The notes below the pieces were generated by a model. The model worked only from the letters and a program-made list of their open reading frames with translations, searched no databases and had not been told where the DNA came from. A DNA stretch of 64,000 nt from a virus. The stretch lies in the IMG/VR virus record IMGVR_UViG_3300008113_011148, positions 1-64,000 of that record. One strand, 5' to 3'. Numbering within the stretch: the stretch's first letter is position 1; each line of letters begins with the position of its first letter. A program made the position numbers and the translations under genes. This document shows, one piece after another, positions 7,695 to 53,818 of this stretch.

Positions 7695-8870
7695 TTAGTT
7701 GAGCATTTGTTTGAAATTTTCAATTTCAATTCTTTTTATTTCATCACCTAAGGCTTTTCCTTTGAAACCTTGTGACATCAATTCCTGAGCAGATGTTGTT
7801 GGTTTGTATTCTACAAACTTTATTTTTACTGGATCATTTATACCTAACGCTCTAAACCATTCTAAAATAGTTTTATCTTCTATATGACATTGTAATTTTG
7901 ATTTATGTAAATCAAATGCAGTATCTGCTGTTAATTCTAAAAGTCTAATTAAAAAGACAACTTTAGAAGCTATCTGAGAATCTATTCTATATTCTTGCAC
8001 TAATCTTTTTTCTAAACCATCTGTATTCTCATTTTTAAAAAGGTTGGCAATCACAACAACAAAGTCTTTACTATCAACTAATTCAGTATTGATGTTAGAT
8101 CCTGGAAATACTTCAGACCACATATCAAATTTAGTAAAGAAGTTAAGATAATTTCTATAGTCTTTTGCTTGTTTCCAAGACTTGCACATTTCTTCCCAAA
8201 TTCTTTCTTGAGAAATTCTTTTCATTTCACCACTTTCAGGATCAATGTTTTCTAATTGTTTTCTTTTTTCAATTGCCTTCTCGGTATCTTTATGTAGTGG
8301 GTGTCCATATCTTGAAGCAAAACGGAAAGCTCTTAAAATTCTTAAAGAATCTTCATCAAATCTTTCAATCGGATCACCAACCATTTGAGTGACACCTTGC
8401 TCTAAATGTTCACGACCACCAGTCAAATCAACTATTTCTTTTTTATCTAAATCGTAAAAAAGCGCATTATATGTTAAGTCTCTTCGTTTAACATCATCTT
8501 CAATAGTAACTCCTAATTTTACTTCAGGGTTTCTACCTTTTGAAACATCTTCTCTGAATGTAGCAATTTCCATACCCATTGGTTGATCGTTGGTAAATAC
8601 AACAACAACTCCGAATGCCTTACCCTGTAAATTGGTTTTGTATTTATTTCCTAATATTTCTAATACTTCATCTGGAAGTGCATCAGTCGCTAAGTCAAAG
8701 TCTTTAGGAGTATCTCCAGTTAAGAAGTCTCTAACGGCTCCTCCAACAACATATAGTTTCTTGCCTTTTGATTTGAAAAGTAATTGTAAATCTTTTACAG
8801 ACTCTGGAATAATATCCCACATATTGTCTGATTTTGATTCTAAAAATTGTTTATATTTTTTTATTTTCAT
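7695..8870 (-). CDS. CCA-adding tRNA nucleotidyltransferase with capsid-targeting-like N-terminus
   Basis: A 391-residue class II tRNA nucleotidyltransferase or poly(A) polymerase relative. It shows GGAVRD (43-48), the metal-binding DFDLATD (57-63), VKRRDLTYNAL near 130 and the ERFDEDSLRILRAFRFASR helix, followed by an all-helical C-terminal half. These enzymes add or repair the 3' CCA of tRNA. The first residues, MKIKKYKQFLES, precede the catalytic domain and match the recurrent peptide of this window (hydrophobic-x-Glu at 9-11), so the enzyme may be packaged and injected; that is inference. A TGAATATATA box lies 5 nt before the ATG. CCA-adding and poly(A)-adding activity cannot be distinguished by eye. 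Confidence 0.85.
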   Translation of the reverse strand: MKIKKYKQFLESKSDNMWDIIPESVKDLQLLFKSKGKKLYVVGGAVRDFLTGDTPKDFDLATDALPDEVLEILGNKYKTNLQGKAFGVVVVFTNDQPMGMEIATFREDVSKGRNPEVKLGVTIEDDVKRRDLTYNALFYDLDKKEIVDLTGGREHLEQGVTQMVGDPIERFDEDSLRILRAFRFASRYGHPLHKDTEKAIEKRKQLENIDPESGEMKRISQERIWEEMCKSWKQAKDYRNYLNFFTKFDMWSEVFPGSNINTELVDSKDFVVVIANLFKNENTDGLEKRLVQEYRIDSQIASKVVFLIRLLELTADTAFDLHKSKLQCHIEDKTILEWFRALGINDPVKIKFVEYKPTTSAQELMSQGFKGKALGDEIKRIEIENFKQMLN

Positions 8871-8904: not shown

Positions 8905-9402
8905 TTAGTATATGACTATACCGAACTCTATAAAATTAGAAGGTGAAACCTCTCTGAAACTTTTGTTGAGATTGTCTATATTATATTCTAAAATAGAAAA
9001 TCTTGAATCACCACCACAAGTCCAAAAAAACAATTTTAAAGACTCTTCTCCTAAATAAAACTCAAGATGTTTGAGTGTGTTATAAAACCAACTGGTGTTA
9101 TATTTTCTTGGTTTTAAGAAATCATTTTTTATAAAATTTTTATCAAATTCAAAATTTATATAAATTTTAGGTTCGATAGATTTTTTTACCATTGTTGGTA
9201 ATTTTTTCAATGGAGTTTTAACCAAATTATTAAAATTTAGATCATCGTATGTGAATATATCAAACTCCATATCATTTTCTTGAAATTCAATTAGAATATC
9301 TTTAATGACTTTACAAGTCGATGTTAAATCTAATTGATTGTTTTCAAAATTAATTGAAGTGGATTCGTTAAATTTCTTTAAGTATTTCATAATGTATTTC
9401 AT
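8905..9402 (-). CDS. Unknown protein with capsid-targeting-like N-terminus
   Basis: A 165-residue protein. There are two in-frame starts 12 nt apart; the second (9390) gives MKYLKKFNEST, which matches the start of the neighbouring paralogues exactly, and is the more likely one. Possible prohead-protease cut after F-N-E. The rest is mixed alpha/beta without a recognised domain. It is the last gene of a five-gene run (13117 to 8905) of proteins with the same N-terminus, separated by 0-10 nt. Confidence 0.6.
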   Translation of the reverse strand: MKYIMKYLKKFNESTSINFENNQLDLTSTCKVIKDILIEFQENDMEFDIFTYDDLNFNNLVKTPLKKLPTMVKKSIEPKIYINFEFDKNFIKNDFLKPRKYNTSWFYNTLKHLEFYLGEESLKLFFWTCGGDSRFSILEYNIDNLNKSFREVSPSNFIEFGIVIY

Positions 9403-9405
9403 AAT

Positions 9406-10683
9406 TTAATCTCTATATAATGAATTTAATCTTGTTATTCTTAACTTATCTATAAATTCTTCAAACTCTGACAATTCAACTGGTCTTTCATCATGCTCAC
9501 ACCAAGTTTCTAATATATCTTCTTTAAAGTCTTTACCATTAGGTTGTATGTAATCGATGTCACCTTCAAAAAGAGCAACTAATAAGTTTCTGAATTTGAT
9601 TGCTTCCCTTCTATTAGCAAAATAAACTTCACTGAATTCAGACCCCTCAATTGATATTACACCCGATGGAGTAAGTGGTAGTTTCACACGATCTTCATCT
9701 GTATAATTTTGTGTAGTAAGATTGATATAAATATCTTGTAACCAAATTATACCATTCGCTCTATTTGTATAACCTTTAATATCACCACCAGCATACCAAT
9801 CTAAAACTTCTAAATCTTCTTCTGAAACTGGATGAACTCCAAACATAAATTGTGGCCAAAGATTATATCTATCAAAATCCATCCATTCTGGTAACAACTC
9901 ATTTTTGTAATAGTCAGAATTAAAATAAATTTGAATGTAACAGTTTGCAAACCTTATTTCACTTGCTGATCTACCAGTAAATCTTAATTGAAATTGACCT
10001 AACTTTTTTGCTTCTTCTAAAGCCTTTTTGTGTTTAGCTTCTACTTCTCTTTGCTTAATAGTTTCAGCCCAAGCTTTAAGTTGCTCAGGTCTTTTGATAT
10101 GACCTAACTTAGACAGTTTATCAGCAGCACTTATATATGTTTGTGGTTTTAATTCTTCATTAGTTGAAAGATGACCTCTTGTTTTATCTACAACAATTTT
10201 ATCTTTAGTGAAGGAAATCTCAAATGTGAATTTATTAACTCTATCAAAAGTCATTGGATCATAAACTTGTGATTTATTAATTTGAGGTCTTCTTTGGTAT
10301 TCTTTTTCAATAGACTTCACACCAAATGTTTCCGGATCTGTTGTCCAATGATAACCTTTAATTTTCTGGTTAATTGTGAATTCATCTTCTGATTCTTCAA
10401 AGTTTTCATCTTCTACACAAGTAAAGTGTTCTATTTCAAATCCTTCAGATTTTAAATAAGACCAAACTGATTCAATTTGAAGTTTTATATCTCCATAAGT
10501 GAATTCTTTAGCCCTACTTACAACAACTTTGACTCTTTCTTTTTGAGAATGATAATCTATTTCAGATACTTTAGTCTCAAAATCTTCATCTCTTAAATCA
10601 ATAAGCAAGTCTTCAATAGTTGATTTCAATTCTGAATTCAATCTAACACCAACAGCTTCTTCATATCTTTTTAAATACTTCAT
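9406..10683 (-). CDS. Tandem paralogue 4 of the KYLKRFNE family (long form)
   Basis: A 425-residue protein beginning MKYLKRYEEA. It shares two modules with the next three genes: TYISAADKLSKLGH followed by a WA-x(3)-[KE] helix (here about 180-220), and a late RREAIKFRNLL helix (about 360-372). The C-terminus SLYRD is shared with the adjacent paralogue. Uniquely, about 160 extra residues are inserted between the N-terminal peptide and the first module. No enzyme motif is seen. Packaging in the capsid is inferred from the N-terminus. Confidence 0.65.
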   Translation of the reverse strand: MKYLKRYEEAVGVRLNSELKSTIEDLLIDLRDEDFETKVSEIDYHSQKERVKVVVSRAKEFTYGDIKLQIESVWSYLKSEGFEIEHFTCVEDENFEESEDEFTINQKIKGYHWTTDPETFGVKSIEKEYQRRPQINKSQVYDPMTFDRVNKFTFEISFTKDKIVVDKTRGHLSTNEELKPQTYISAADKLSKLGHIKRPEQLKAWAETIKQREVEAKHKKALEEAKKLGQFQLRFTGRSASEIRFANCYIQIYFNSDYYKNELLPEWMDFDRYNLWPQFMFGVHPVSEEDLEVLDWYAGGDIKGYTNRANGIIWLQDIYINLTTQNYTDEDRVKLPLTPSGVISIEGSEFSEVYFANRREAIKFRNLLVALFEGDIDYIQPNGKDFKEDILETWCEHDERPVELSEFEEFIDKLRITRLNSLYRD

Positions 10684-10686
10684 CTC

Positions 10687-11547
10687 TTAATCTCTATATA
10701 AACCATTTACTGACATTCTCTTAACCGCCTCAATAGCTCCTTTATAAGTATCCTCTGTAAAAGGATTTTTTGGCCATGTATCTGGATTATTAATATCATA
10801 TTCATCTTCTCTACCTGGTAAAAACTTATCCATTAGTTTTTCTCTCCAGTCTTCTTCATCTAAAATAATTACCTCTTTTAATTGTTGAGCAATTGTTCTA
10901 CCTTTCCAAGTTCCCCAGTTAGCTTTTCCTTCTAATGTATTAGCTAATAAGTTTCTAAATTTCATAGCTTCTGCTCTTGAATTAAAATGGAATGTAAAAC
11001 TATCTCTATCTTCAAATCCACCAGCACCTGCCCTACAAAGAGGAACTGCACCTTTATCACAGAGTGTAAGCCAAAGTCTATTTGTCCAGTATCTATAATC
11101 ATCTCCCCACATTGAGTTATTTCTAAAATACACTATATCCCCGTCTTCACTTGTTTCTAACATTCTAAGTGTTTCGTCATCTGAAGGTATAATTGCAAAC
11201 TCCATAGCAATTCCCATATGCCAATCCATACCCTCATATATCCAATCCCATAATTGGTCTTTAAACCAATCAGATTCTAAACACATCTGTAGATAAAATT
11301 TACCAGAAAAAACATCTTTCTTATTTGACCCATAACCTCTTGTCATAGTAATATCAAATAGACCATACTCTTTATTTTCATCCTGAGCTTGTCTTAACTT
11401 TTGAGATTTCTCTCTTAATTCAACTTGAGTCGCATAATCTAATAATTCAGCACCTCTTCTTTTATGACCCATCTTAGTGAATTTATCACCAGCTGATCTA
11501 TAAGTAGATGCTTTTAACTCTTCATTAAATCTTTTTAAGTATTTCAT
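10687..11547 (-). CDS. Tandem paralogue 3 of the KYLKRFNE family
   Basis: A 286-residue protein beginning MKYLKRFNEELKASTYRSAG. The TY-x-SA-x-[DR]K-[FL]-x-KMGH module directly follows the N-terminal peptide, and SRAEAMKFRNLLANTLEG is the late helix. It ends GLYRD like its neighbour. The middle is Trp/Tyr-rich beta structure. It overlaps the next upstream gene by 4 nt, so the paralogues form one translation-coupled operon. Function unknown. Confidence 0.65.
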   Translation of the reverse strand: MKYLKRFNEELKASTYRSAGDKFTKMGHKRRGAELLDYATQVELREKSQKLRQAQDENKEYGLFDITMTRGYGSNKKDVFSGKFYLQMCLESDWFKDQLWDWIYEGMDWHMGIAMEFAIIPSDDETLRMLETSEDGDIVYFRNNSMWGDDYRYWTNRLWLTLCDKGAVPLCRAGAGGFEDRDSFTFHFNSRAEAMKFRNLLANTLEGKANWGTWKGRTIAQQLKEVIILDEEDWREKLMDKFLPGREDEYDINNPDTWPKNPFTEDTYKGAIEAVKRMSVNGLYRD

Positions 11548-12290
11548 ATCGTTGAGGAAAGTAAATTTGGAGATATTGTTCTAATGTAGTCAGCTGCATC
11601 TTCTAATTTAAATCCATAATCAGAAGAGAATGAATTCTCAGCTAAAATAGTATTAGTTAATTTTTCATAAAGGTCATCAGCATCAGTATATCCAGATGGA
11701 TAACCTAATTGTGGATTACTAAATATTTGAATTAGTAAGGTTTTAAATTTATTAGCAGAAGCTCTATCAGCAAAAGCCACTTTACCATTCATATCTTCAT
11801 CATAGTCCCAAAGTTCATATTTAGTGAATTTAACTTGATCGTCACTTAAATCATACTTCAATGTAAATATCTTACCCCAGAAGAAACCATTTCCAAAATC
11901 ATAGTCAGGACAAAGATCCATATATTGATAGATTAAATCTTCAGATGATGGAATAAGTCCTAAAAAGAAAGTGATTCCATTTTCAGGTTCATCAGAAAAT
12001 GCAAGTTCATCAAAGTTAATATCTAAGTGAAAGTCACCAGTAAGTGTATCACCCTTTCCTGTCCAACTTCTTTTTTCTGGATTTTTTATAGTCATCTTAA
12101 ATGTTCCAAAAGGAGAATAATCTTGTATGCGGTCTTGCCACTTAATCATTTCTTCTTTTTTCTCAGTTTCTTTGGCCCAATCTTTAAGAGCATTTGCTCT
12201 ATCGTGATGACCTAATTTATCTAATTTTCTAGCAGCAGACATATAAGTCTGTGGTCTTAATTCTTCGTTAAATTTCTTTAAATATTTCAT
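11544..12290 (-). CDS. Tandem paralogue 2 of the KYLKRFNE family
   Basis: A 248-residue protein beginning MKYLKKFNEELRPQTYMSAA, with KLDKLGHHDRANALKDWAKE directly after and the late DRASANKFKTLLIQIF helix. It is the same architecture as its neighbours but lacks the YRD ending. There is no signal peptide or membrane segment. Function unknown; the common frame suggests repeated gene duplication followed by rapid divergence of the middle. Confidence 0.65.
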   Translation of the reverse strand: MKYLKKFNEELRPQTYMSAARKLDKLGHHDRANALKDWAKETEKKEEMIKWQDRIQDYSPFGTFKMTIKNPEKRSWTGKGDTLTGDFHLDINFDELAFSDEPENGITFFLGLIPSSEDLIYQYMDLCPDYDFGNGFFWGKIFTLKYDLSDDQVKFTKYELWDYDEDMNGKVAFADRASANKFKTLLIQIFSNPQLGYPSGYTDADDLYEKLTNTILAENSFSSDYGFKLEDAADYIRTISPNLLSSTI

Positions 12291-12298
12291 ACTATTAA

Positions 12299-13117
12299 TT
12301 ATATTTCTCTAAACCAAGTCGATTGGCTACTTTTATCAATGTCAATTGAAAAAAGATTATTAACACTTATCTTATTTATTCTATCTTCAAAATCTTCTAT
12401 GTCGTCAGCTGAAGCATTTACACAACTAAGTAGTTCCATTACCTTTTCTTTGTGTGGTGATATTAAATCATTTAGTTGTCTTTTGAATTTTAGAGCAGAA
12501 GCTCTATCTGAAAATATTCCAAAATATGGATATTCTTTAGCATAATACTTTTTAACAGGCTTTGACTTCATAATCAAAACTTCATTTGTCCATTTATACA
12601 TACCATTTATATCAACTACCGCATCTCCAGTCATTGGCTCTTCAGTATCATAATCCCAATTATATTGGTCTAATCCTTCTTCCCAATTACTAAACCAAAC
12701 TTGAAATGAAAACATCGGTAAATTAGATGTTTTAATTTCTTGCCAGGAGTCATATTTATCTTTTGTTTCTTCAGCAGGTTGAAAAGTAAAATTAAAAGTC
12801 ACACAAAGTGGTTGATTACCAGCTGCCCAATATTCAACCATCTGTTCTGCTGAGTAATCAAAGGTCTTTAGTTCTGAAGAATTTGGTCTACCAAAATAAC
12901 AATCACATTTTGGATTAGTAAATTTAGCCGATTGAGCAATAACATTTGTGGTATTAGCCCAATGTATATTGTAAAAACCATACTGCTTCTCTAATCCATA
13001 GTCAATAAGAGGAGTTGCCCTTTTTTTACCACCACCTGGTAGCTGTCTTAATCTGTAACCAGCTTGTATATAGGTATTTGGTTTAAGCTCTTCGTTGAAT
13101 CTTTTAATATACTTCAT
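12299..13117 (-). CDS. Tandem paralogue 1 of the KYIKRFNE family
   Basis: A 272-residue protein beginning MKYIKRFNEELKPNTYIQAG, the first gene of the tandem run. The late helix DRASALKFKRQLNDLI is conserved, while the first module is degenerate (YRLRQLPGGGKKRA). The centre is Trp/Asn/Thr-rich. A TTAATATATA box lies 6 nt before the ATG and probably drives the whole run down to 8905. Function unknown. Confidence 0.65.
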   Translation of the reverse strand: MKYIKRFNEELKPNTYIQAGYRLRQLPGGGKKRATPLIDYGLEKQYGFYNIHWANTTNVIAQSAKFTNPKCDCYFGRPNSSELKTFDYSAEQMVEYWAAGNQPLCVTFNFTFQPAEETKDKYDSWQEIKTSNLPMFSFQVWFSNWEEGLDQYNWDYDTEEPMTGDAVVDINGMYKWTNEVLIMKSKPVKKYYAKEYPYFGIFSDRASALKFKRQLNDLISPHKEKVMELLSCVNASADDIEDFEDRINKISVNNLFSIDIDKSSQSTWFREI

Positions 13118-13123
13118 ACTTTT

Positions 13124-13133
13124 TATATATTAA
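13124..13133 (-). promoter_or_regulatory. Late-promoter-like box TTAATATATA (leftward)
   Basis: A perfect copy, 6 nt before the ATG of the first tandem paralogue. It is back to back with a rightward copy at 13138-13147. Confidence 0.5.
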
Positions 13134-13137
13134 GTTT

Positions 13138-13147
13138 TTAATATATA
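13138..13147 (+). promoter_or_regulatory. Late-promoter-like box TTAATATATA (rightward)
   Basis: A perfect copy, 4 nt before the ATG of the putative ADP-ribosyltransferase gene. Together with the leftward copy it makes a divergent pair inside a 34-nt intergenic gap. Confidence 0.5.
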
Positions 13148-13151
13148 ATTT

Positions 13152-13574
13152 ATGAAATGGATTAAATTATTCAATAAAATGAATGAGAATAATAGTGTTT
13201 TCTATAACAAAACCTCTGAGTTTATAATCAAAAGTTTACCTAAAGTCAAAGATGGTTATATCAGATTATGGAGAGGAAATAGACCAAATGAAGTGGGTAT
13301 AAATCCAAGTTATACTTCATCTTTAGAAGGAATAGCTTTACCATTTGTCTATGGATATGATGGAGTTTTGTCTTATATAGATTTACCAATTAGTGACATA
13401 TCAAACTATGAAGTTTCTGGTGGAGTTGATGGTGAAGAATTTATAATACCAAATTCTTTATTAAAAAATGTTGTTGTTGTTGATAAAATTCTATATAAAA
13501 AAAATTTACCAGATACATTATCAGTAGGTAATATATCATCATTTGATGATTTTGCTGATAATTTTCTTAAATAA
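13152..13574 (+). CDS. Putative small mono-ADP-ribosyltransferase with capsid-targeting-like N-terminus
   Basis: A 140-residue protein. After an N-terminus of the recurrent type (MKWIKLFNKMNENN) it shows the order of motifs of R-S-E ADP-ribosyltransferases: IRLWRG with R41, YTSSLEGIALPF with the Ser-Thr-Ser-like turn at 55-57 and the following A-x-x-F helix, and GEEFIIP with candidate catalytic E96. T4 Alt, which is packaged and injected to modify host RNA polymerase, belongs to the same superfamily. The -2 Glu/Gln of the classic [QE]-x-E motif is Gly here, so the assignment is a motif-level inference. A TTAATATATA box lies 4 nt upstream. Confidence 0.5.
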   Translation: MKWIKLFNKMNENNSVFYNKTSEFIIKSLPKVKDGYIRLWRGNRPNEVGINPSYTSSLEGIALPFVYGYDGVLSYIDLPISDISNYEVSGGVDGEEFIIPNSLLKNVVVVDKILYKKNLPDTLSVGNISSFDDFADNFLK

Positions 13575-13585
13575 ATATTTGAAGT

Positions 13586-13840
13586 ATGAGACGAATCAAA
13601 CTATTTGAAGATTTCAAGCAAAATAATGAAGAAGGAACTCTTATCACAATCGATGATATAATCAAATGTATTAAGAAAAGAGGAGTTATTTATTCTACAA
13701 TTGTTAAAGAGTATCCAGATAATGATCCGAAAGATCCAATCACTCCAGTTGATATAGATGAAGATGGTTTAATCACAGTTGATATAGACGGTAGAGAATA
13801 CTATGTTGATTTAGATGATGTTGAGAAAATCGAATACTAA
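13586..13840 (+). CDS. Small acidic protein with capsid-targeting-like N-terminus
   Basis: An 84-residue protein beginning MRRIKLFEDF, a member of the same N-terminal set with L-F-E at 6-8. The rest is acidic and beta-rich (VDIDEDGLITVDIDGREYYVDLDDVEK). It follows the putative ADP-ribosyltransferase by 11 nt and is probably co-expressed. An inhibitor or partner role is possible but nothing in the sequence proves it. Confidence 0.55.
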   Translation: MRRIKLFEDFKQNNEEGTLITIDDIIKCIKKRGVIYSTIVKEYPDNDPKDPITPVDIDEDGLITVDIDGREYYVDLDDVEKIEY

Positions 13841-49565: not shown

Positions 49566-50123
49566 ATGAAAATCGTAAAATACCAAGAATTTATAAAAGA
49601 GGAATTACAAGATACTCCTGAGACTTATGTTGCTACCGCTTTAAACAATTTGAAGCGAAAGATTGATAAAATGTTTGAATTTCAATCTGATGACGAAAAT
49701 GATAAAGAAGAGAATAAAGAGCAAGATATAAAAAGTGTAAAGAAAAAAAGTAAAGAGAAAATGAGTTTCGAAGACTTGGGTGTTAGACTTGAAAGTTCTG
49801 AAATTTCTAAATATTCAAAACTATTTGATTCATTGACTGTCAAATTTTCAGACGATCAGAATACTTATACTCTTATATTTATGATAGATTTAAAAGATGC
49901 TATGCCGAAAGATCCTGCAAAAGATTTTGACATAGACCAAATAGAAAAGTGTTATATTAAATTTAAAAAATATGACTTAGACACATTTGAGGTAATTGGT
50001 CAATTAAGTAAAAATGTAGAAATGAAAAAAATTGATGAGGACTTCATTATAGAGTTAAAATTAGAACTCGATGAGAAATTTGGAGACTCAGATGAGGAAA
50101 AATTTGAGATAGAAACAGAATAA
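49566..50123 (+). CDS. Unknown protein with capsid-targeting-like N-terminus
   Basis: A 185-residue protein beginning MKIVKYQEFIKEELQDTPE, the copy closest to the T4 internal-protein type (KYQEFI-x-E, I-K-E at 10-12). An acidic/basic low-complexity linker (about 40-65) is followed by a beta-rich domain (LTVKFSDDQNTYTLIFMIDL) and an acidic end. The small compact domain after a linker fits a packaged protein; no enzyme motif is visible. Confidence 0.65.
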   Translation: MKIVKYQEFIKEELQDTPETYVATALNNLKRKIDKMFEFQSDDENDKEENKEQDIKSVKKKSKEKMSFEDLGVRLESSEISKYSKLFDSLTVKFSDDQNTYTLIFMIDLKDAMPKDPAKDFDIDQIEKCYIKFKKYDLDTFEVIGQLSKNVEMKKIDEDFIIELKLELDEKFGDSDEEKFEIETE

Positions 50124-50152
50124 GAGAGACCCTAAAATTTAATAAATAATTT

Positions 50153-50665
50153 ATGGGTTTAAATATAGTTTCAAGTCAGTTTGTTTCTAATTGTTTCAAA
50201 AAATCAAGATTTTTTAGAAAAAATTTAGGATTAGTCTCTACCATAGATAAGAATGGTAAAAGAATTGCTAATGATAAAGATAAATTTAGCTCTCACTATA
50301 ATGGAATATATCGAACTACAATTTTTGCACAAGGTAATGTTGGTGATATAAAGTTTTACATAGACCATTACATTCGTGATAATACATTTGCTGTTTATAG
50401 TGGTGATACTTTTGAAGAATTTATTTTCACATTTGATGTGTCATTTTTTACAGAAAAAGGCGCCGATAATTATTTAGGCTTTATATTAAAAAGTGTAGAT
50501 GATATGTATGAAGAAAGAGTGAAAAATAATGAGCTTAAGAAGTTAGAACCAAAACCTGTAGGTAATGCTGATATGATTACTAAAAATCCAGGAAATGTAT
50601 CATATGCCGACCTAAAAGCTTATTTAGAAAAGAAAAGAGCTGAAAGATATAAAAAATTTGATTAA
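50153..50665 (+). CDS. Unknown protein upstream of endolysin
   Basis: A 170-residue protein (FVSNCFKKSRFFRKNLGLVS, then YRTTIFAQGNVGDIKFYIDH). The C-terminal third is charged and helical (DLKAYLEKKRAERYKKFD). No signal peptide or membrane segment, so not a holin by sequence. It lies 3 nt before the endolysin gene. Function unknown. Confidence 0.55.
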   Translation: MGLNIVSSQFVSNCFKKSRFFRKNLGLVSTIDKNGKRIANDKDKFSSHYNGIYRTTIFAQGNVGDIKFYIDHYIRDNTFAVYSGDTFEEFIFTFDVSFFTEKGADNYLGFILKSVDDMYEERVKNNELKKLEPKPVGNADMITKNPGNVSYADLKAYLEKKRAERYKKFD

Positions 50666-50668
50666 ACA

Positions 50669-51664
50669 ATGAAACTTAAAAGAGTAATTCAACTTAAAAT
50701 GACTGGTGATGATGTAAAATACATTCAAACACTTCTTAAAGAATATGGTTTTTTTAAAGATAGAGTTGATGGTTATTTCGGACAAAATACACTTGTAGCG
50801 GTTTCAAATTTTCAAAGAGCTGTTTCTACAAAAGCGGATGGTATTGTTGGACCTTTGACTTGGAATAAATTACAACTATATGGAACAGATATGCCAGTAT
50901 TTCAGAAAAAAAATGACAAAGAAATTCCCTATAAGGTTTCATTCGTATCTGAAAGTGGACTTGAGATTTATGATAATTTTTTATCTGAAGATGAGTATTA
51001 TAAAAAGGAAACAAATAAAAATACAATCTGGTTACACCATACCGCCGGTGGTTCTAGGCCTGATTGGACAATAGGTGGTTGGGAAAAAGATTTTCAAAAA
51101 GACGAAGAGGGCAATCCTAAATTAGATTCAGATGGTAATGCTTTACCTTTGAGAGTGGGTACACACTTTGTCATCGGAAGAAAATCATCATCAACTGATT
51201 TTCCACTCTGGGATGGTAAAGTTTTAAGAGCATTCGATGAAAGATATTGGGCATATCACCTTGGAATATCTACTAAGAACAGTGAACAACTAAATTCACG
51301 TTCAATAGGAATAGAAATATGTAATTATGGACCTTTGACTTTAGGAAAAGATGAGAAATTTTATAACTATGTTAATAAACCAGTTAATAAAATTGATGTT
51401 GTTGAATTATCTAAACCATTCAGGGGTTATAAATTTTGGGAAAAATATACTGACGCTCAACTTGAAAGTACAAGAAAATTAATTATCCACCTTAGTAAAA
51501 TATGGAATATGGAAATTGAATCTGGTATCTATGATGAAAATTGGTTTAATTATGACCAGAAATGGTTTAGTTTAGGTGGTTTGAGAACTCATACACAAGT
51601 AAGAAAAGATAAGTTTGACCTTTTTCCTCAACCAGAATTGATTCAAATGTTAAATAGTCTTTAA
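50669..51664 (+). CDS. Endolysin: PG-binding domain plus N-acetylmuramoyl-L-alanine amidase
   Basis: A 331-residue lysin. Residues 5-70 are a PG_binding_1 domain (VKYIQTLLKEYGF, DGYFGQNTLVAVSNFQ, DGIVGPLTWNKLQ). The amidase_2 domain (about 115-310) has IWLHHTAGG with the first zinc His, a central HFVIGR strand, AYHLGIS and GIEICNYG. No signal peptide, so a holin or other release route is required. Classic late lysis enzyme. Confidence 0.9.
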   Translation: MKLKRVIQLKMTGDDVKYIQTLLKEYGFFKDRVDGYFGQNTLVAVSNFQRAVSTKADGIVGPLTWNKLQLYGTDMPVFQKKNDKEIPYKVSFVSESGLEIYDNFLSEDEYYKKETNKNTIWLHHTAGGSRPDWTIGGWEKDFQKDEEGNPKLDSDGNALPLRVGTHFVIGRKSSSTDFPLWDGKVLRAFDERYWAYHLGISTKNSEQLNSRSIGIEICNYGPLTLGKDEKFYNYVNKPVNKIDVVELSKPFRGYKFWEKYTDAQLESTRKLIIHLSKIWNMEIESGIYDENWFNYDQKWFSLGGLRTHTQVRKDKFDLFPQPELIQMLNSL

Positions 51665-51901
51665 TGATTGATAGATTGTAATTTTATCCCACTCATCTAA
51701 ATCCTCAAAATCAAAACTAATATCGAAGTCATCATAAAAACAATGTATTAGTATTCTATTTTCATTTTTTATATATTCAATAGATTCTACTTTACCGAAA
51801 CTGACCTCTATTTCGATAACAATTTCAGAAATACCTTTACCTAACCTATTGATGATATCAATGGTTTTCTTTTTGAGTACATTATCTAAAATTTTTTTCA
51901 T
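51650..51901 (-). CDS. Unknown small acidic protein
   Basis: An 83-residue protein (IVIEIEVSFGKVESIEYIKN, FDISFDFEDLDEWDKITIY) that converges on and overlaps the endolysin by 15 nt. Alternating charged strands, no motif. It has no clear promoter box. Function unknown. Confidence 0.45.
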   Translation of the reverse strand: MKKILDNVLKKKTIDIINRLGKGISEIVIEIEVSFGKVESIEYIKNENRILIHCFYDDFDISFDFEDLDEWDKITIYQSLKTI

Positions 51902-51959
51902 AACATATATATTTTTGTTTTTTTATGATTAAAAAAAATAACATTTGAATTTTTAAAAA

Positions 51960-51969
51960 TTAATATATA
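51960..51969 (+). promoter_or_regulatory. Late-promoter-like box TTAATATATA
   Basis: A perfect copy, 5 nt before the ATG at 51975. Confidence 0.5.
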
Positions 51970-51974
51970 TCCAT

Positions 51975-53216
51975 ATGAAAGTTTTTAAATATTCAGAGTT
52001 TTTAACTGAAAGTAAGATTGAAGAATTACTTTTAGAATCTAAAGTTGTTTTTTCAAAGAAGTTTTTAAATCTTCTTAATAGAATGAGAACAAATAAAATC
52101 GCTAGTGATTTATTAAATATTTATTCGAAAGATTACAATGTTCAACATAATTATATTGATATTACGGATAATAAAGAAGAGGTATCATTTACACCTGATA
52201 GAAAGGTTCAAGAATTGATTGCAGGGAAACCAGAAGTATATAAAGTTGGAACTCGTCGTCAATTAACACATAGTGATTCAAATAACAAATTATTTGAAGC
52301 TTTGGGATATGATAAAAATCAAGAATATTGGACGCCAAATGATGGACAAAGAGGTTTAATTAAATCAGAGGTTGTTAGTCCAACTTCTGGTAAAGTATTT
52401 GTCCTTTTTGAAGAATTAACTGATGAAGTTGAAAAAAGATATGCTGTTTTAAATAAAGATTGCTTAAGCTTAGCAGATTTTGATGATTCAAACATATGGA
52501 AAACTTCTCGTAATCCGATTAGAATTGGAAGACTTATAAGACCACTTCTAAGATCTGTTGGTGTTACTGTTACTGATAGAGAAGTCGAGGAGTTTACAAA
52601 TATGTGGAAAGCAACATACGATTTTGCAGCAGATGTTTTAAAACAATTTGATATTGTTAAAGGTAATACTATTGCTTATTGGTATGACTATGGAAAATAT
52701 GTTGATGGTGGTGGAACACTTAACAACTCTTGTATGGCTGAAGTTGATTCGGATTACTTTGAGATTTATACTTCAAATTCACAAGTTCAATTAGTTATCC
52801 TTTATGATGATAACGGACAAGTTCAAGATGGTAAATACACATCAACTAAAATTAAAGGTAGAGCAATTCTTTGGGATGCTGAACTAAATGGTCAAAAAGA
52901 AATGTTTATGGATAGAATCTATACTACTTATGATTCAGATGTAGACCTTTTCAAACAATTCGCTCAAAAGAATGGTTGGTTTTATAAAGACTCTCAAAGT
53001 ATGACACCAAGAGAATATATTACAAACGGAACATCTAAATCAAGACCAGAGATAATTGTTAAAGTAGATAACGCAGATTGTGAATACTATCCATATGTTG
53101 ATACTATGTGTTTTTGTTATACTGGTTCTAATGAGTTAAGAAATACACAAGACGATGATGATTCTTCTATGAGAGTTCTTCGCTCAACTGAAGGTGAATG
53201 GTATAGTGATTATTAA
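51975..53216 (+). CDS. Large protein with capsid-targeting-like N-terminus
   Basis: A 413-residue protein beginning MKVFKYSEFLTESKIEELLL (L-T-E at 10-12, the canonical prohead-protease type). The body has TIAYWYDYGKYVDGGGTLNN, SCMAEVDSDYFEIYTSNSQV, VLIKGRAILWD-like and FMDRIYTTYDSDVDLFKQFA segments that recur in hypothetical proteins of other large phages; no catalytic function is known for them. It is the strongest candidate here for a major packaged protein. It lies 2 nt upstream of another member. Confidence 0.65.
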   Translation: MKVFKYSEFLTESKIEELLLESKVVFSKKFLNLLNRMRTNKIASDLLNIYSKDYNVQHNYIDITDNKEEVSFTPDRKVQELIAGKPEVYKVGTRRQLTHSDSNNKLFEALGYDKNQEYWTPNDGQRGLIKSEVVSPTSGKVFVLFEELTDEVEKRYAVLNKDCLSLADFDDSNIWKTSRNPIRIGRLIRPLLRSVGVTVTDREVEEFTNMWKATYDFAADVLKQFDIVKGNTIAYWYDYGKYVDGGGTLNNSCMAEVDSDYFEIYTSNSQVQLVILYDDNGQVQDGKYTSTKIKGRAILWDAELNGQKEMFMDRIYTTYDSDVDLFKQFAQKNGWFYKDSQSMTPREYITNGTSKSRPEIIVKVDNADCEYYPYVDTMCFCYTGSNELRNTQDDDDSSMRVLRSTEGEWYSDY

Positions 53217-53218
53217 TT

Positions 53219-53818
53219 ATGAAGATAAAGAAGACATATAAAGAATTCATAAAAGAAAGTAATGAATATATTGATGAAAAAACAATCAATGATATTTTTA
53301 TTGATTTAATTGATATGGATTTCACACTTACGTTTATTGATGGATACCGAGCTAGTAAAGATAAAGGCGCTAAGTATTTTATTGATTTAAAGAAAACCGC
53401 TAATAGTAAATATGACTATATTGAAAATGATTATGCTTATGGTGTCTCTAATTTAGAACCTATGAAAGTAGATATAAGTAAGGTTTTAGATGCCTTACAA
53501 TCGGCTAAAGAAACTTTGAATAGTATGGAATACACAGTTGGTTATGAAATTGAATTCAACTTTAATGATCAAAGTCAATTTCAGATTTCTTGTCATATTC
53601 AACATAATGATACTATTGGTCAAATAATAGAATCAAAGAAAGAAATAAAATCAGAATTAAAAGGGAATGACTACCAAATGGTTTCTGGTATTATAGATAT
53701 ACTTAAAAAAGTAAAAGATAAAGAAAATAGAATGGAAATAGCAAAAGATATGATTTCTCAATTTAAAAGAGAAGATATAAAATTTGACTATGATAAATTT
53801 TTAGATTCAATAAAATAA
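53219..53818 (+). CDS. Unknown protein with capsid-targeting-like N-terminus
   Basis: A 199-residue protein beginning MKIKKTYKEFIKESNEYIDE (I-K-E at 11-13). It has an alpha/beta middle (DMDFTLTFIDGYRASKDKGA, YTVGYEIEFNFNDQSQFQIS) and a helical Lys-rich end. It is coupled to the previous gene and ends at a strong terminator. Function unknown. Confidence 0.6.
   Translation: MKIKKTYKEFIKESNEYIDEKTINDIFIDLIDMDFTLTFIDGYRASKDKGAKYFIDLKKTANSKYDYIENDYAYGVSNLEPMKVDISKVLDALQSAKETLNSMEYTVGYEIEFNFNDQSQFQISCHIQHNDTIGQIIESKKEIKSELKGNDYQMVSGIIDILKKVKDKENRMEIAKDMISQFKREDIKFDYDKFLDSIK

What the first reader, a model, noticed from the sequence alone, without database searches (positions are those of the whole stretch)
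13152..13574. Tiny Alt-like ADP-ribosyltransferase candidate with packaging-type N-terminus
RLWRG, YTSSLEGIALPF and GEEFIIP appear in the order and spacing of R-S-E ADP-ribosyltransferases within only 140 residues, after the recurrent N-terminal peptide. T4 packages Alt, an enzyme of this superfamily, to modify host RNA polymerase. The following gene (13586-13840) carries the same kind of N-terminus and may be co-delivered.
Basis: partly seen in the sequence, partly recalled or inferred. Interest (0 to 1): 0.72.

Follow-up and report, generated by a model that had tools for sequence, protein, structure and literature searches.

The report
Compact phage ADP-ribosyltransferase-like protein
This small phage gene most likely encodes a very compact relative of the enzymes that use NAD to tag proteins, belonging to a so far unnamed family that viruses of bacteria and some plasmids carry inside proteins they probably deliver into the cells they enter.

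Summary
The ORF at 13152-13574 (+) and its motifs are real. Direct searches found no relative, but degenerate-pattern scans found a family: 18 further distinct copies in unnamed viral contigs. R38, R41, T55 and E96 are invariant in 19 of 19. P0001 and its closest relative, L044, differ under purifying selection (dN 0.26, dS 0.65). With this alignment AlphaFold2 rises from pLDDT 31 to 85. VIA-align's 50 listed structures are, by title and my knowledge, all ADP-ribosyltransferase (ART) superfamily, but Z is only 3.0-4.5 and Foldseek finds nothing significant. No Pfam, PHROG or PDB sequence covers the family. It is not Alt/Mod: profile comparison fails and the E-x-E motif is absent in 18 of 19. 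Most copies lie in large phage proteins, several with polyvalent-protein domains or beside internal-virion-type proteins; E96-less copies sit in Rhizobium plasmid relaxase/LPD7 proteins. In the window P0001 is a recent insertion: its 34-bp leader is identical to that of the neighbour gene p2 in a relative lacking P0001. Best reading: a stand-alone minimal ART-like effector, probably virion-delivered. Activity, target and packaging are unproven.

The parts
13118..13151 (.). 34-bp divergent intergenic region (promoter/leader) in front of P0001; ancestral leader of the next gene p2
   Evidence: 34 of 34 bases identical to the leader of p2 in relative L006, which lacks P0001; the 34 bp now in front of the window's p2 match it at 14 of 34
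13152..13172 (+). First 7 codons of P0001 (MKWIKLF), the recurrent N-terminal peptide
   Evidence: 19 of 21 bases identical to the first 7 codons of p2 in L006; tag recurs in the window
13152..13574 (+). P0001, 140-aa ART-like protein; conserved module about residues 17-140
   Evidence: ORF; 58% identical to L044 protein; 18 other distinct family copies; dN 0.26, dS 0.65 against L044; AF2 pLDDT 85.2, pTM 0.75
13272..13274 (+). Codon of R41 (RLWRG), proposed NAD-binding Arg on the first strand (36-43); R38 is at 13263-13265
   Evidence: Invariant in 19 of 19; strand 36-43 in the model
13314..13316 (+). Codon of T55, proposed equivalent of a hydroxyl residue of the S-T-S motif, just before helix 58-69
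   Evidence: Invariant in 19 of 19; strand 53-55 then helix 58-69
13437..13439 (+). Codon of E96, proposed catalytic Glu at the start of strand 96-98
   Evidence: Invariant in 19 of 19; replaced in the four Rhizobium plasmid homologues read
13586..13840 (+). p2, 84-aa protein of unknown function with its own tag MRRIKLFEDF; older resident whose leader P0001 now occupies
   Evidence: Homologues at 11 of 14 related loci, 40-95% identity
12299..13117 (-). Divergent tagged gene (MKYIKRFNEEL...), first of a block of tagged genes down to 8905; marks the other side of the insertion site
   Evidence: Same gene divergent from p2 in L006 and L007, similar tagged genes in L018 and L011

Best explanation
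P0001 is a minimal stand-alone member of a new family of ART-fold domains (signature R-L-[WY]-R-G-N-R ... [FY]-T-x-x-[LA]-x-G-[IVL]-A-[LI]-P-F ... Y-x-x-x-[LI]-[ST]-[YF]-[VI]-D ... E-[FV]). Mechanism proposed: NAD+ binds between R41 and T55; E96 helps nicotinamide leave; ADP-ribose goes to a host acceptor or to water. The protein is probably carried in the virion through its N-terminal tag and enters with the DNA, as homologous domains would inside giant ejection-type proteins. Shown: the gene, the family, residue conservation, purifying selection, the insertion history, the associations. Predicted: the ART fold. Inferred: NAD use, virion delivery. Unknown: the target. Rough estimates: ART fold 0.85, active enzyme 0.7, virion-delivered 0.6.
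For: Family of 19 distinct copies with invariant G35, R38, L39, R41, G42, N43, R44, T55, G60, A62, P64, F65, Y69, D77, E96. AF2 with this alignment: pLDDT 85.2, pTM 0.75; residues 36-43, 53-55 and 96-98 are strands and 58-69 a helix, the expected order of an ART core with R, S/T and E on successive strands (ART topology recalled). VIA-align: all 50 listed rows are ART-superfamily by title and my knowledge (Tpt1/KptA Z 4.5, TreX 4.2, diphtheria toxin 4.1, ParT 3.7, PARP10, PARP16). BFVD: a Mycobacterium phage protein named ADP-ribosyltransferase at E 0.054, prob 0.87. Delivery: of six large host proteins scanned, four carry LPD domains: LPD38 (1e-40), LPD23 (1e-22), LPD22 (1e-8), weaker LPD39 (8e-5); neighbours of the L043 and L049 copies match 'internal virion protein' phrog_418 (2e-4, 1.6e-14), and the L043 host protein matches phrog_6651 weakly (5e-4). 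Polyvalent proteins are argued to be injected with phage DNA (PMC5512222, passages). Both P0001 and the L044 homologue start with peptides that recur in their own records.
Against: No Foldseek PDB match below E 1.1 and no VIA Z of 5 or more; the tool warns that Z under 8 may be a common arrangement. Catalytic geometry could not be measured (no coordinates). No sequence link to any named ART: Pfam, PHROGs, NCBIfam, PDB, Mod profiles. E-x-E absent in 18 of 19. The single-sequence AF2 model failed (pLDDT 30.7). The tag as a packaging signal is analogy only; a tagged protein at 7695-8870 looks like a nucleotidyltransferase rather than an effector (by eye).
Confidence: 0.5

Rival explanations
1. 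ART-fold enzyme, but made in the infected cell rather than packaged, like T4 ModA/ModB; the N-terminal peptide serves another purpose (translation start context, complex assembly).
For: P0001 took over a complete leader and first codons of p2, which would serve expression whatever the peptide does. Tagged ORFs are many (13 of 38 M-K/R starts) and one looks like a nucleotidyltransferase. No T4-type prohead protease found in the window's record (a fragment).
Against: Homologous domains lie in giant proteins with LPD domains or beside internal-virion-type proteins. L044's copy also carries its own record's recurrent start.
Confidence: 0.25
2. ART-fold NAD+ hydrolase, or an enzyme acting on nucleic acid or a small molecule, not a protein modifier; its gain could relate to NAD-based defence.
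For: E-x-E/Q-x-E, which in the R-S-E clade goes with Arg or Asn/Gln/Cys transfer (recalled), is missing in 18 of 19. Best structural rows include KptA/Tpt1 and ParT, which act on RNA ends and a metabolic enzyme (functions recalled).
Against: No direct evidence; all structural scores are low and tied.
Confidence: 0.3
3. ART-like fold kept for binding, without catalysis.
For: Rhizobium plasmid homologues lack E96, so the fold can persist without it.
Against: E96, R41 and T55 are invariant in all 19 phage copies, across giant proteins and stand-alone forms.
Confidence: 0.1
4. Not an ART at all; another small alpha/beta fold with a coincidental motif (for instance the GEEFIIPN stretch also resembles a segment of an archaeal MscS-like channel).
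For: Foldseek not significant; residues 66-104 are 41% identical to part of a Haladaptatus membrane protein.
Against: The Haladaptatus match lacks the R and T segments; all 50 listed VIA rows are ARTs; three motif residues are invariant in the expected order.
Confidence: 0.1

Closest known systems
ART domains of polyvalent proteins (Iyer et al. 2017, PMC5512222; passages read)
   Same: Enzyme-like domain inside giant phage and conjugation proteins with LPD domains, argued there to be injected with the DNA
   Different: Those described have an H-Y-D active site; this family has R-T-E. [quoted passage not shown]
T4 Alt, ModA and ModB (R-S-E clade)
   Same: Order R, S/T, E; ModA LWRG and EQEVMIP resemble LWRG and GEEFIIP; Alt is virion-borne (PMC9026906, passages)
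   Different: No detectable profile relation; no E-x-E; about 100-residue core against 200-680 aa; target unknown
T4 capsid targeting sequence of internal proteins
   Same: Short N-terminal peptide shared by otherwise unrelated proteins; in T4 the first 10 residues of IPIII suffice for targeting (PMC9026906, passages)
   Different: Not shown to target or to be cleaved here; no T4-type prohead protease found in the window's own record (a fragment)
DUF5872-type protein of Flavobacterium phage immuto (QQO91866)
   Same: Same N- and C-terminal parts as the L044 homologue
   Different: Lacks the ART-like module that lies between them in L044
Rhizobium plasmid LPD7/relaxase proteins
   Same: Homologous domain, A4 HMM E 5.9e-10 to 1.5e-6
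   Different: E96 replaced; domain part of a conjugation protein

Membership tests
ART superfamily | ART fold | tested here: inconclusive
   Model pLDDT 85.2; 50 of 50 listed VIA rows are ARTs by title and my knowledge but Z 3.0-4.5; Foldseek PDB best E 1.1
ART superfamily | Three conserved active-site residues on successive core strands | tested here: met
   R41 (strand 36-43), T55 (53-55), E96 (96-98), invariant in 19 of 19
ART superfamily | NAD+ binding and turnover | not testable with these tools
   Needs an assay
R-S-E clade | S-T-S-type motif after the Arg strand | tested here: inconclusive
   S53-Y-T55 in P0001; T55 invariant, position 53 varies S/T/Q/N
R-S-E clade | E/Q two residues before the catalytic Glu (typical of many members, recalled) | tested here: not met
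   E in 1 of 19 (L104); otherwise G 13, N 2, D 2, S 1 (counted by eye)
T4 Alt/Mod family | Sequence or profile relation | tested here: not met
   HMM of 13 Mod proteins gives P0001 E 220; hhalign probability 1%; no hit to PF03496 for P0001 or for any of 13 family members
T4-type capsid targeting sequence | Short N-terminal peptide shared by many proteins | tested here: met
   13 of 38 against 3 of 52 internal controls
T4-type capsid targeting sequence | Cleavage by a prohead protease and presence in virions | not testable with these tools
   S77 protease: 0 in own record, 1 of 14 relatives and below cut-off (G003, E 1.2e-5), clear in phage immuto; no virion data
Polyvalent proteins | Several domains including LPDs in one large protein | tested here: not met
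   P0001 is a single 140-aa domain with no Pfam hit; some of its homologues are in such proteins
RES and Frg ART families | Match to their Pfam models | tested here: inconclusive
   No Pfam hit for P0001 at E<=5 or for 13 members at E<=10 except Mor at 0.013 for one; distant relation not excluded

The most novel reading that the evidence does not exclude
A previously unnamed family of minimal (about 95-residue core) R-T-E ADP-ribosyltransferase-fold effectors that mobile elements plug into whatever delivery vehicle they own: giant polyvalent and internal-virion-type proteins, a DUF5872-like flavophage-type protein, conjugative relaxase proteins, and, in the window, a tagged-cargo slot taken by inserting the gene behind another cargo gene's promoter and tag. 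Injected R-type ARTs would then not be confined to Alt/VIP2 proteins.
Probability: 0.45. Interest if true: 0.7.

Novelty: new variant of a known kind. Interest (0 to 1): 0.52.

Why it matters
Phage-injected ADP-ribosyltransferases are a known strategy, but the published survey I read in passages says those of polyvalent proteins have an H-Y-D active site and that R-S-E ones of the Alt/VIP2 family are not found there. This family, absent from Pfam, PHROGs and the PDB at the thresholds used, appears to break that rule. P0001 is the smallest stand-alone form and easy to express, so it makes a testable entry to the whole family. The insertion of P0001 behind an existing leader and tag shows one way a phage can add a new candidate cargo protein.

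Tried and rejected
Direct searches with P0001 in Pfam, PHROGs, NCBIfam, PDB, phages, plasmids, viral contigs and genome contigs gave nothing useful beyond the own virus. The Aeromonas and Klebsiella phage hits at E 4-9 are chance (the Aeromonas protein lacks the R segment); the Rhizobium hit at E 6 turned out to be real once a profile existed. The Haladaptatus match is a membrane protein sharing one segment.

Alt and Mod families (phrog_832, PF03496) in the window record and 14 relatives: 0 of 15 each. Mod HMM against P0001: E 220, below many shuffles. Profile A2 in the 14 relatives: 0 of 14. Of the 6 stretches, L042 is the own virus, L043 and L044 are real, L040, L041 and L045 chance.

FRG and RES as closer kin: no Pfam match, not excluded. 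First AF2 run without relatives: useless. Catalytic geometry: not measurable, no coordinates were available. A global DNA alignment of window and L006 misplaced the leader; I used the ungapped counts instead. Three of the four relatives compared there share the P0001 leader poorly (L007 14, L018 11, L011 18 of 34 bases, without gaps); only L006 is identical.

Rows dropped: one search took 19 of the 29 loci, leaving out ten (L081, L082, L085, L093-L096, L098, L103, judged duplicates by equal or near-equal hit statistics, and L106, the own virus); L089 then fell as an exact duplicate; L088 and L090 are near-identical but both stay in A4. A3 used 13. The N-terminal Met of L044 in A3 is a start-codon reading artefact; it is not in A4.

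Full report
1. The observation. The window is part of a 67,754-base IMG/VR record. The ORF 13152-13574 (+) encodes 140 aa (P0001) with the three motifs as described. In the window, 1 of 248 stop-to-stop frames of 50 aa or more carries a loose motif of this order and spacing, against 0.005 per shuffled set; 0 of 772 ORFs of 14 related loci carry it (the motif was drawn after the fact). The N-terminal peptide recurs: 13 of 38 ATG-started ORFs beginning M-K/R, against 3 of 52 internal controls.

2. Finding the family. P0001 is an orphan in Pfam, PHROGs, NCBIfam, PDB sequences, phages and plasmids at the thresholds used. The only close viral contig is the same virus, 100% over 10,420 bp. A degenerate DNA pattern of the S and E segments scanned over the viral contigs gave six stretches. 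Two of them encode true relatives in frame: L044 (270 aa, 58% identical) and L043 (inside a 1,556-aa protein). Further scans with profiles and two more patterns raised this to 29 loci in the last scan, the own virus included. Alignment A4 holds P0001 and 18 distinct copies. Invariant in 19 of 19: G35, R38, L39, R41, G42, N43, R44, T55, G60, A62, P64, F65, Y69, D77, E96. An HMM of A4 scores members at 152 bits or more, the four Rhizobium plasmid records read at 26-37 bits, and everything else among 5,855 frames of the fetched loci at 5.5 bits or less. P0001 and L044 share 79 of 124 aligned residues with dN 0.26 and dS 0.65, so the protein is under purifying selection. P0001 ends exactly where the shared stretch ends (SSFDDFAD..K).

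3. Fold. Alone, P0001 gave pLDDT 30.7. With A4 it gave 85.2 and pTM 0.75. Strand 36-43 carries R38 and R41, strand 53-55 ends with T55 and is followed by helix 58-69, and strand 96-98 begins with E96. That is the order expected of an ART core (topology recalled). VIA-align compared 550 chains: 173 at Z 2 or more, none at 5; the 50 listed are all ART-superfamily by title and my knowledge (Tpt1/KptA, TreX, TreTu, diphtheria toxin, ParT, a pertussis-like subunit, cholix, ExoA, PARPs). Foldseek alone finds no significant PDB match (best E 1.1). In BFVD the best is E 0.011, and a Mycobacterium phage protein named ADP-ribosyltransferase scores 0.054. The fold is therefore likely but not proven.

4. 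Not Alt, not Mod. T4 Alt matches PF03496; ModA and ModB match phrog_832. P0001 matches neither. A Mod HMM ranks P0001 below many shuffles and hhalign of A4 against nine Mod proteins gives probability 1%, E 0.055. Alt has EME and ModA EQE at the catalytic site (read); here position -2 is G in 13, N in 2, D in 2, S in 1 and E in 1 of 19. The arginine-transfer chemistry of Alt is therefore not predicted.

5. Where the domain lives. The host ORFs run from 140 aa (P0001) to 2,972 aa stop-to-stop. Of six host proteins scanned (275 to 2,972 aa), four match LPD domains: LPD38 1e-40, LPD23 1e-22, LPD22 1e-8, LPD39 8e-5 (below its cut-off); two match none. The genes beside the L043 and L049 copies match internal virion protein phrog_418 (2.1e-4 and 1.6e-14), and the L043 host protein matches phrog_6651, an internal virion protein, at 5.3e-4. 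L044's protein has N- and C-terminal parts like a Flavobacterium phage immuto protein that lacks the module; its N-terminal part matches DUF5872 at 4e-5, below the cut-off. L044's gene and two neighbours begin MIKL (for one of these an internal ATG is assumed), so it too carries a recurrent start. Rhizobium plasmid LPD7/relaxase proteins carry the domain with E96 replaced.

6. How P0001 came to the window. In relative L006 the gene p2 starts 34 bp from a divergent tagged gene. In the window P0001 occupies that place: its 34-bp leader is 34 of 34 identical to L006's p2 leader and its first 21 bases 19 of 21, while the 34 bp before the window's p2 match at 14 of 34. The leaders of L007, L018 and L011 match P0001's at 14, 11 and 18 of 34, so the argument rests on L006, the nearest relative by p2 (95%). 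p2 homologues occur at 11 of 14 related loci; P0001 occurs in 0 of 14 records (several are fragments). P0001 is thus most simply a recent insertion that uses p2's leader and near-identical tag codons. Whether the tag codons came from p2 or with the insert cannot be told, since tags are alike (15 of 21 between the window's own two genes).

7. Mechanism. Best supported: an ART-fold enzyme that cleaves NAD+ with R41, T55 and E96 and transfers ADP-ribose to an unknown acceptor, delivered with the virion. Steps shown: gene, family, conservation, context. Predicted: fold. Inferred: catalysis and delivery. In T4 the first 10 residues of IPIII suffice for head targeting, and Alt is ejected into the host (PMC9026906, passages). 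Whether the peptide here does the same is open; the T4-type protease family was found clearly only in phage immuto, weakly in one relative, and not in the window's record, a fragment.

8. Novelty. [quoted passage not shown] the later viral survey (PMC9503650, passages) lists Alt/VIP2 and Mod as the frequent R-S-E families of viruses. No Pfam model (13 members), PHROG (19 members) or PDB sequence covers this family at a meaningful score. Paper searches for 'RLWRG' (0 papers), ADP-ribosyltransferase with internal virion protein (2, by listing not about this), with Flavobacterium and jumbo phage (0), and with large polyvalent protein (1, the survey) found no description; subscription journals are mostly not held.

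Noticed in passing
L051-L054 (Rhizobium plasmids): LPD7/relaxase proteins carry a homologous domain in which the catalytic-type Glu is replaced; possible inactive branch delivered by conjugation.
   Followed up: partly
L044 275-1087 (-) and L050 1477-1947 (+): The ART-like module interrupts a DUF5872-type protein in L044; the Flavobacterium phage immuto version lacks it.
   Followed up: partly
window 8905-13117 (-): Block of five tagged genes with related starts (MKYLKRFNEEL...), some similar further in; functions unknown.
   Followed up: no
window 7695-8870 (-): A protein that looks like a tRNA nucleotidyltransferase/poly(A) polymerase (by eye) also starts with a tag-like peptide, MKIKKYKQFLES.
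   Followed up: no
window 13586-13840 (+): p2, 84 aa, conserved at 11 of 14 related loci at 40-95% identity, weak match to phrog_15170 (7.6e-4) of unknown function.
   Followed up: partly
window 49566-53818 (+): Three genes whose starts (MKIVKYQEFIKEE, MKVFKYSEFLTES, MKIKKTYKEFIKES) look closer to the T4 internal-protein leader (recalled) than P0001's tag does.
   Followed up: no
L020 4314-5129 (+): Haladaptatus membrane protein (MscS-like by eye) shares a GEEFIIPN segment with P0001, a warning that the E segment alone is not diagnostic.
   Followed up: yes
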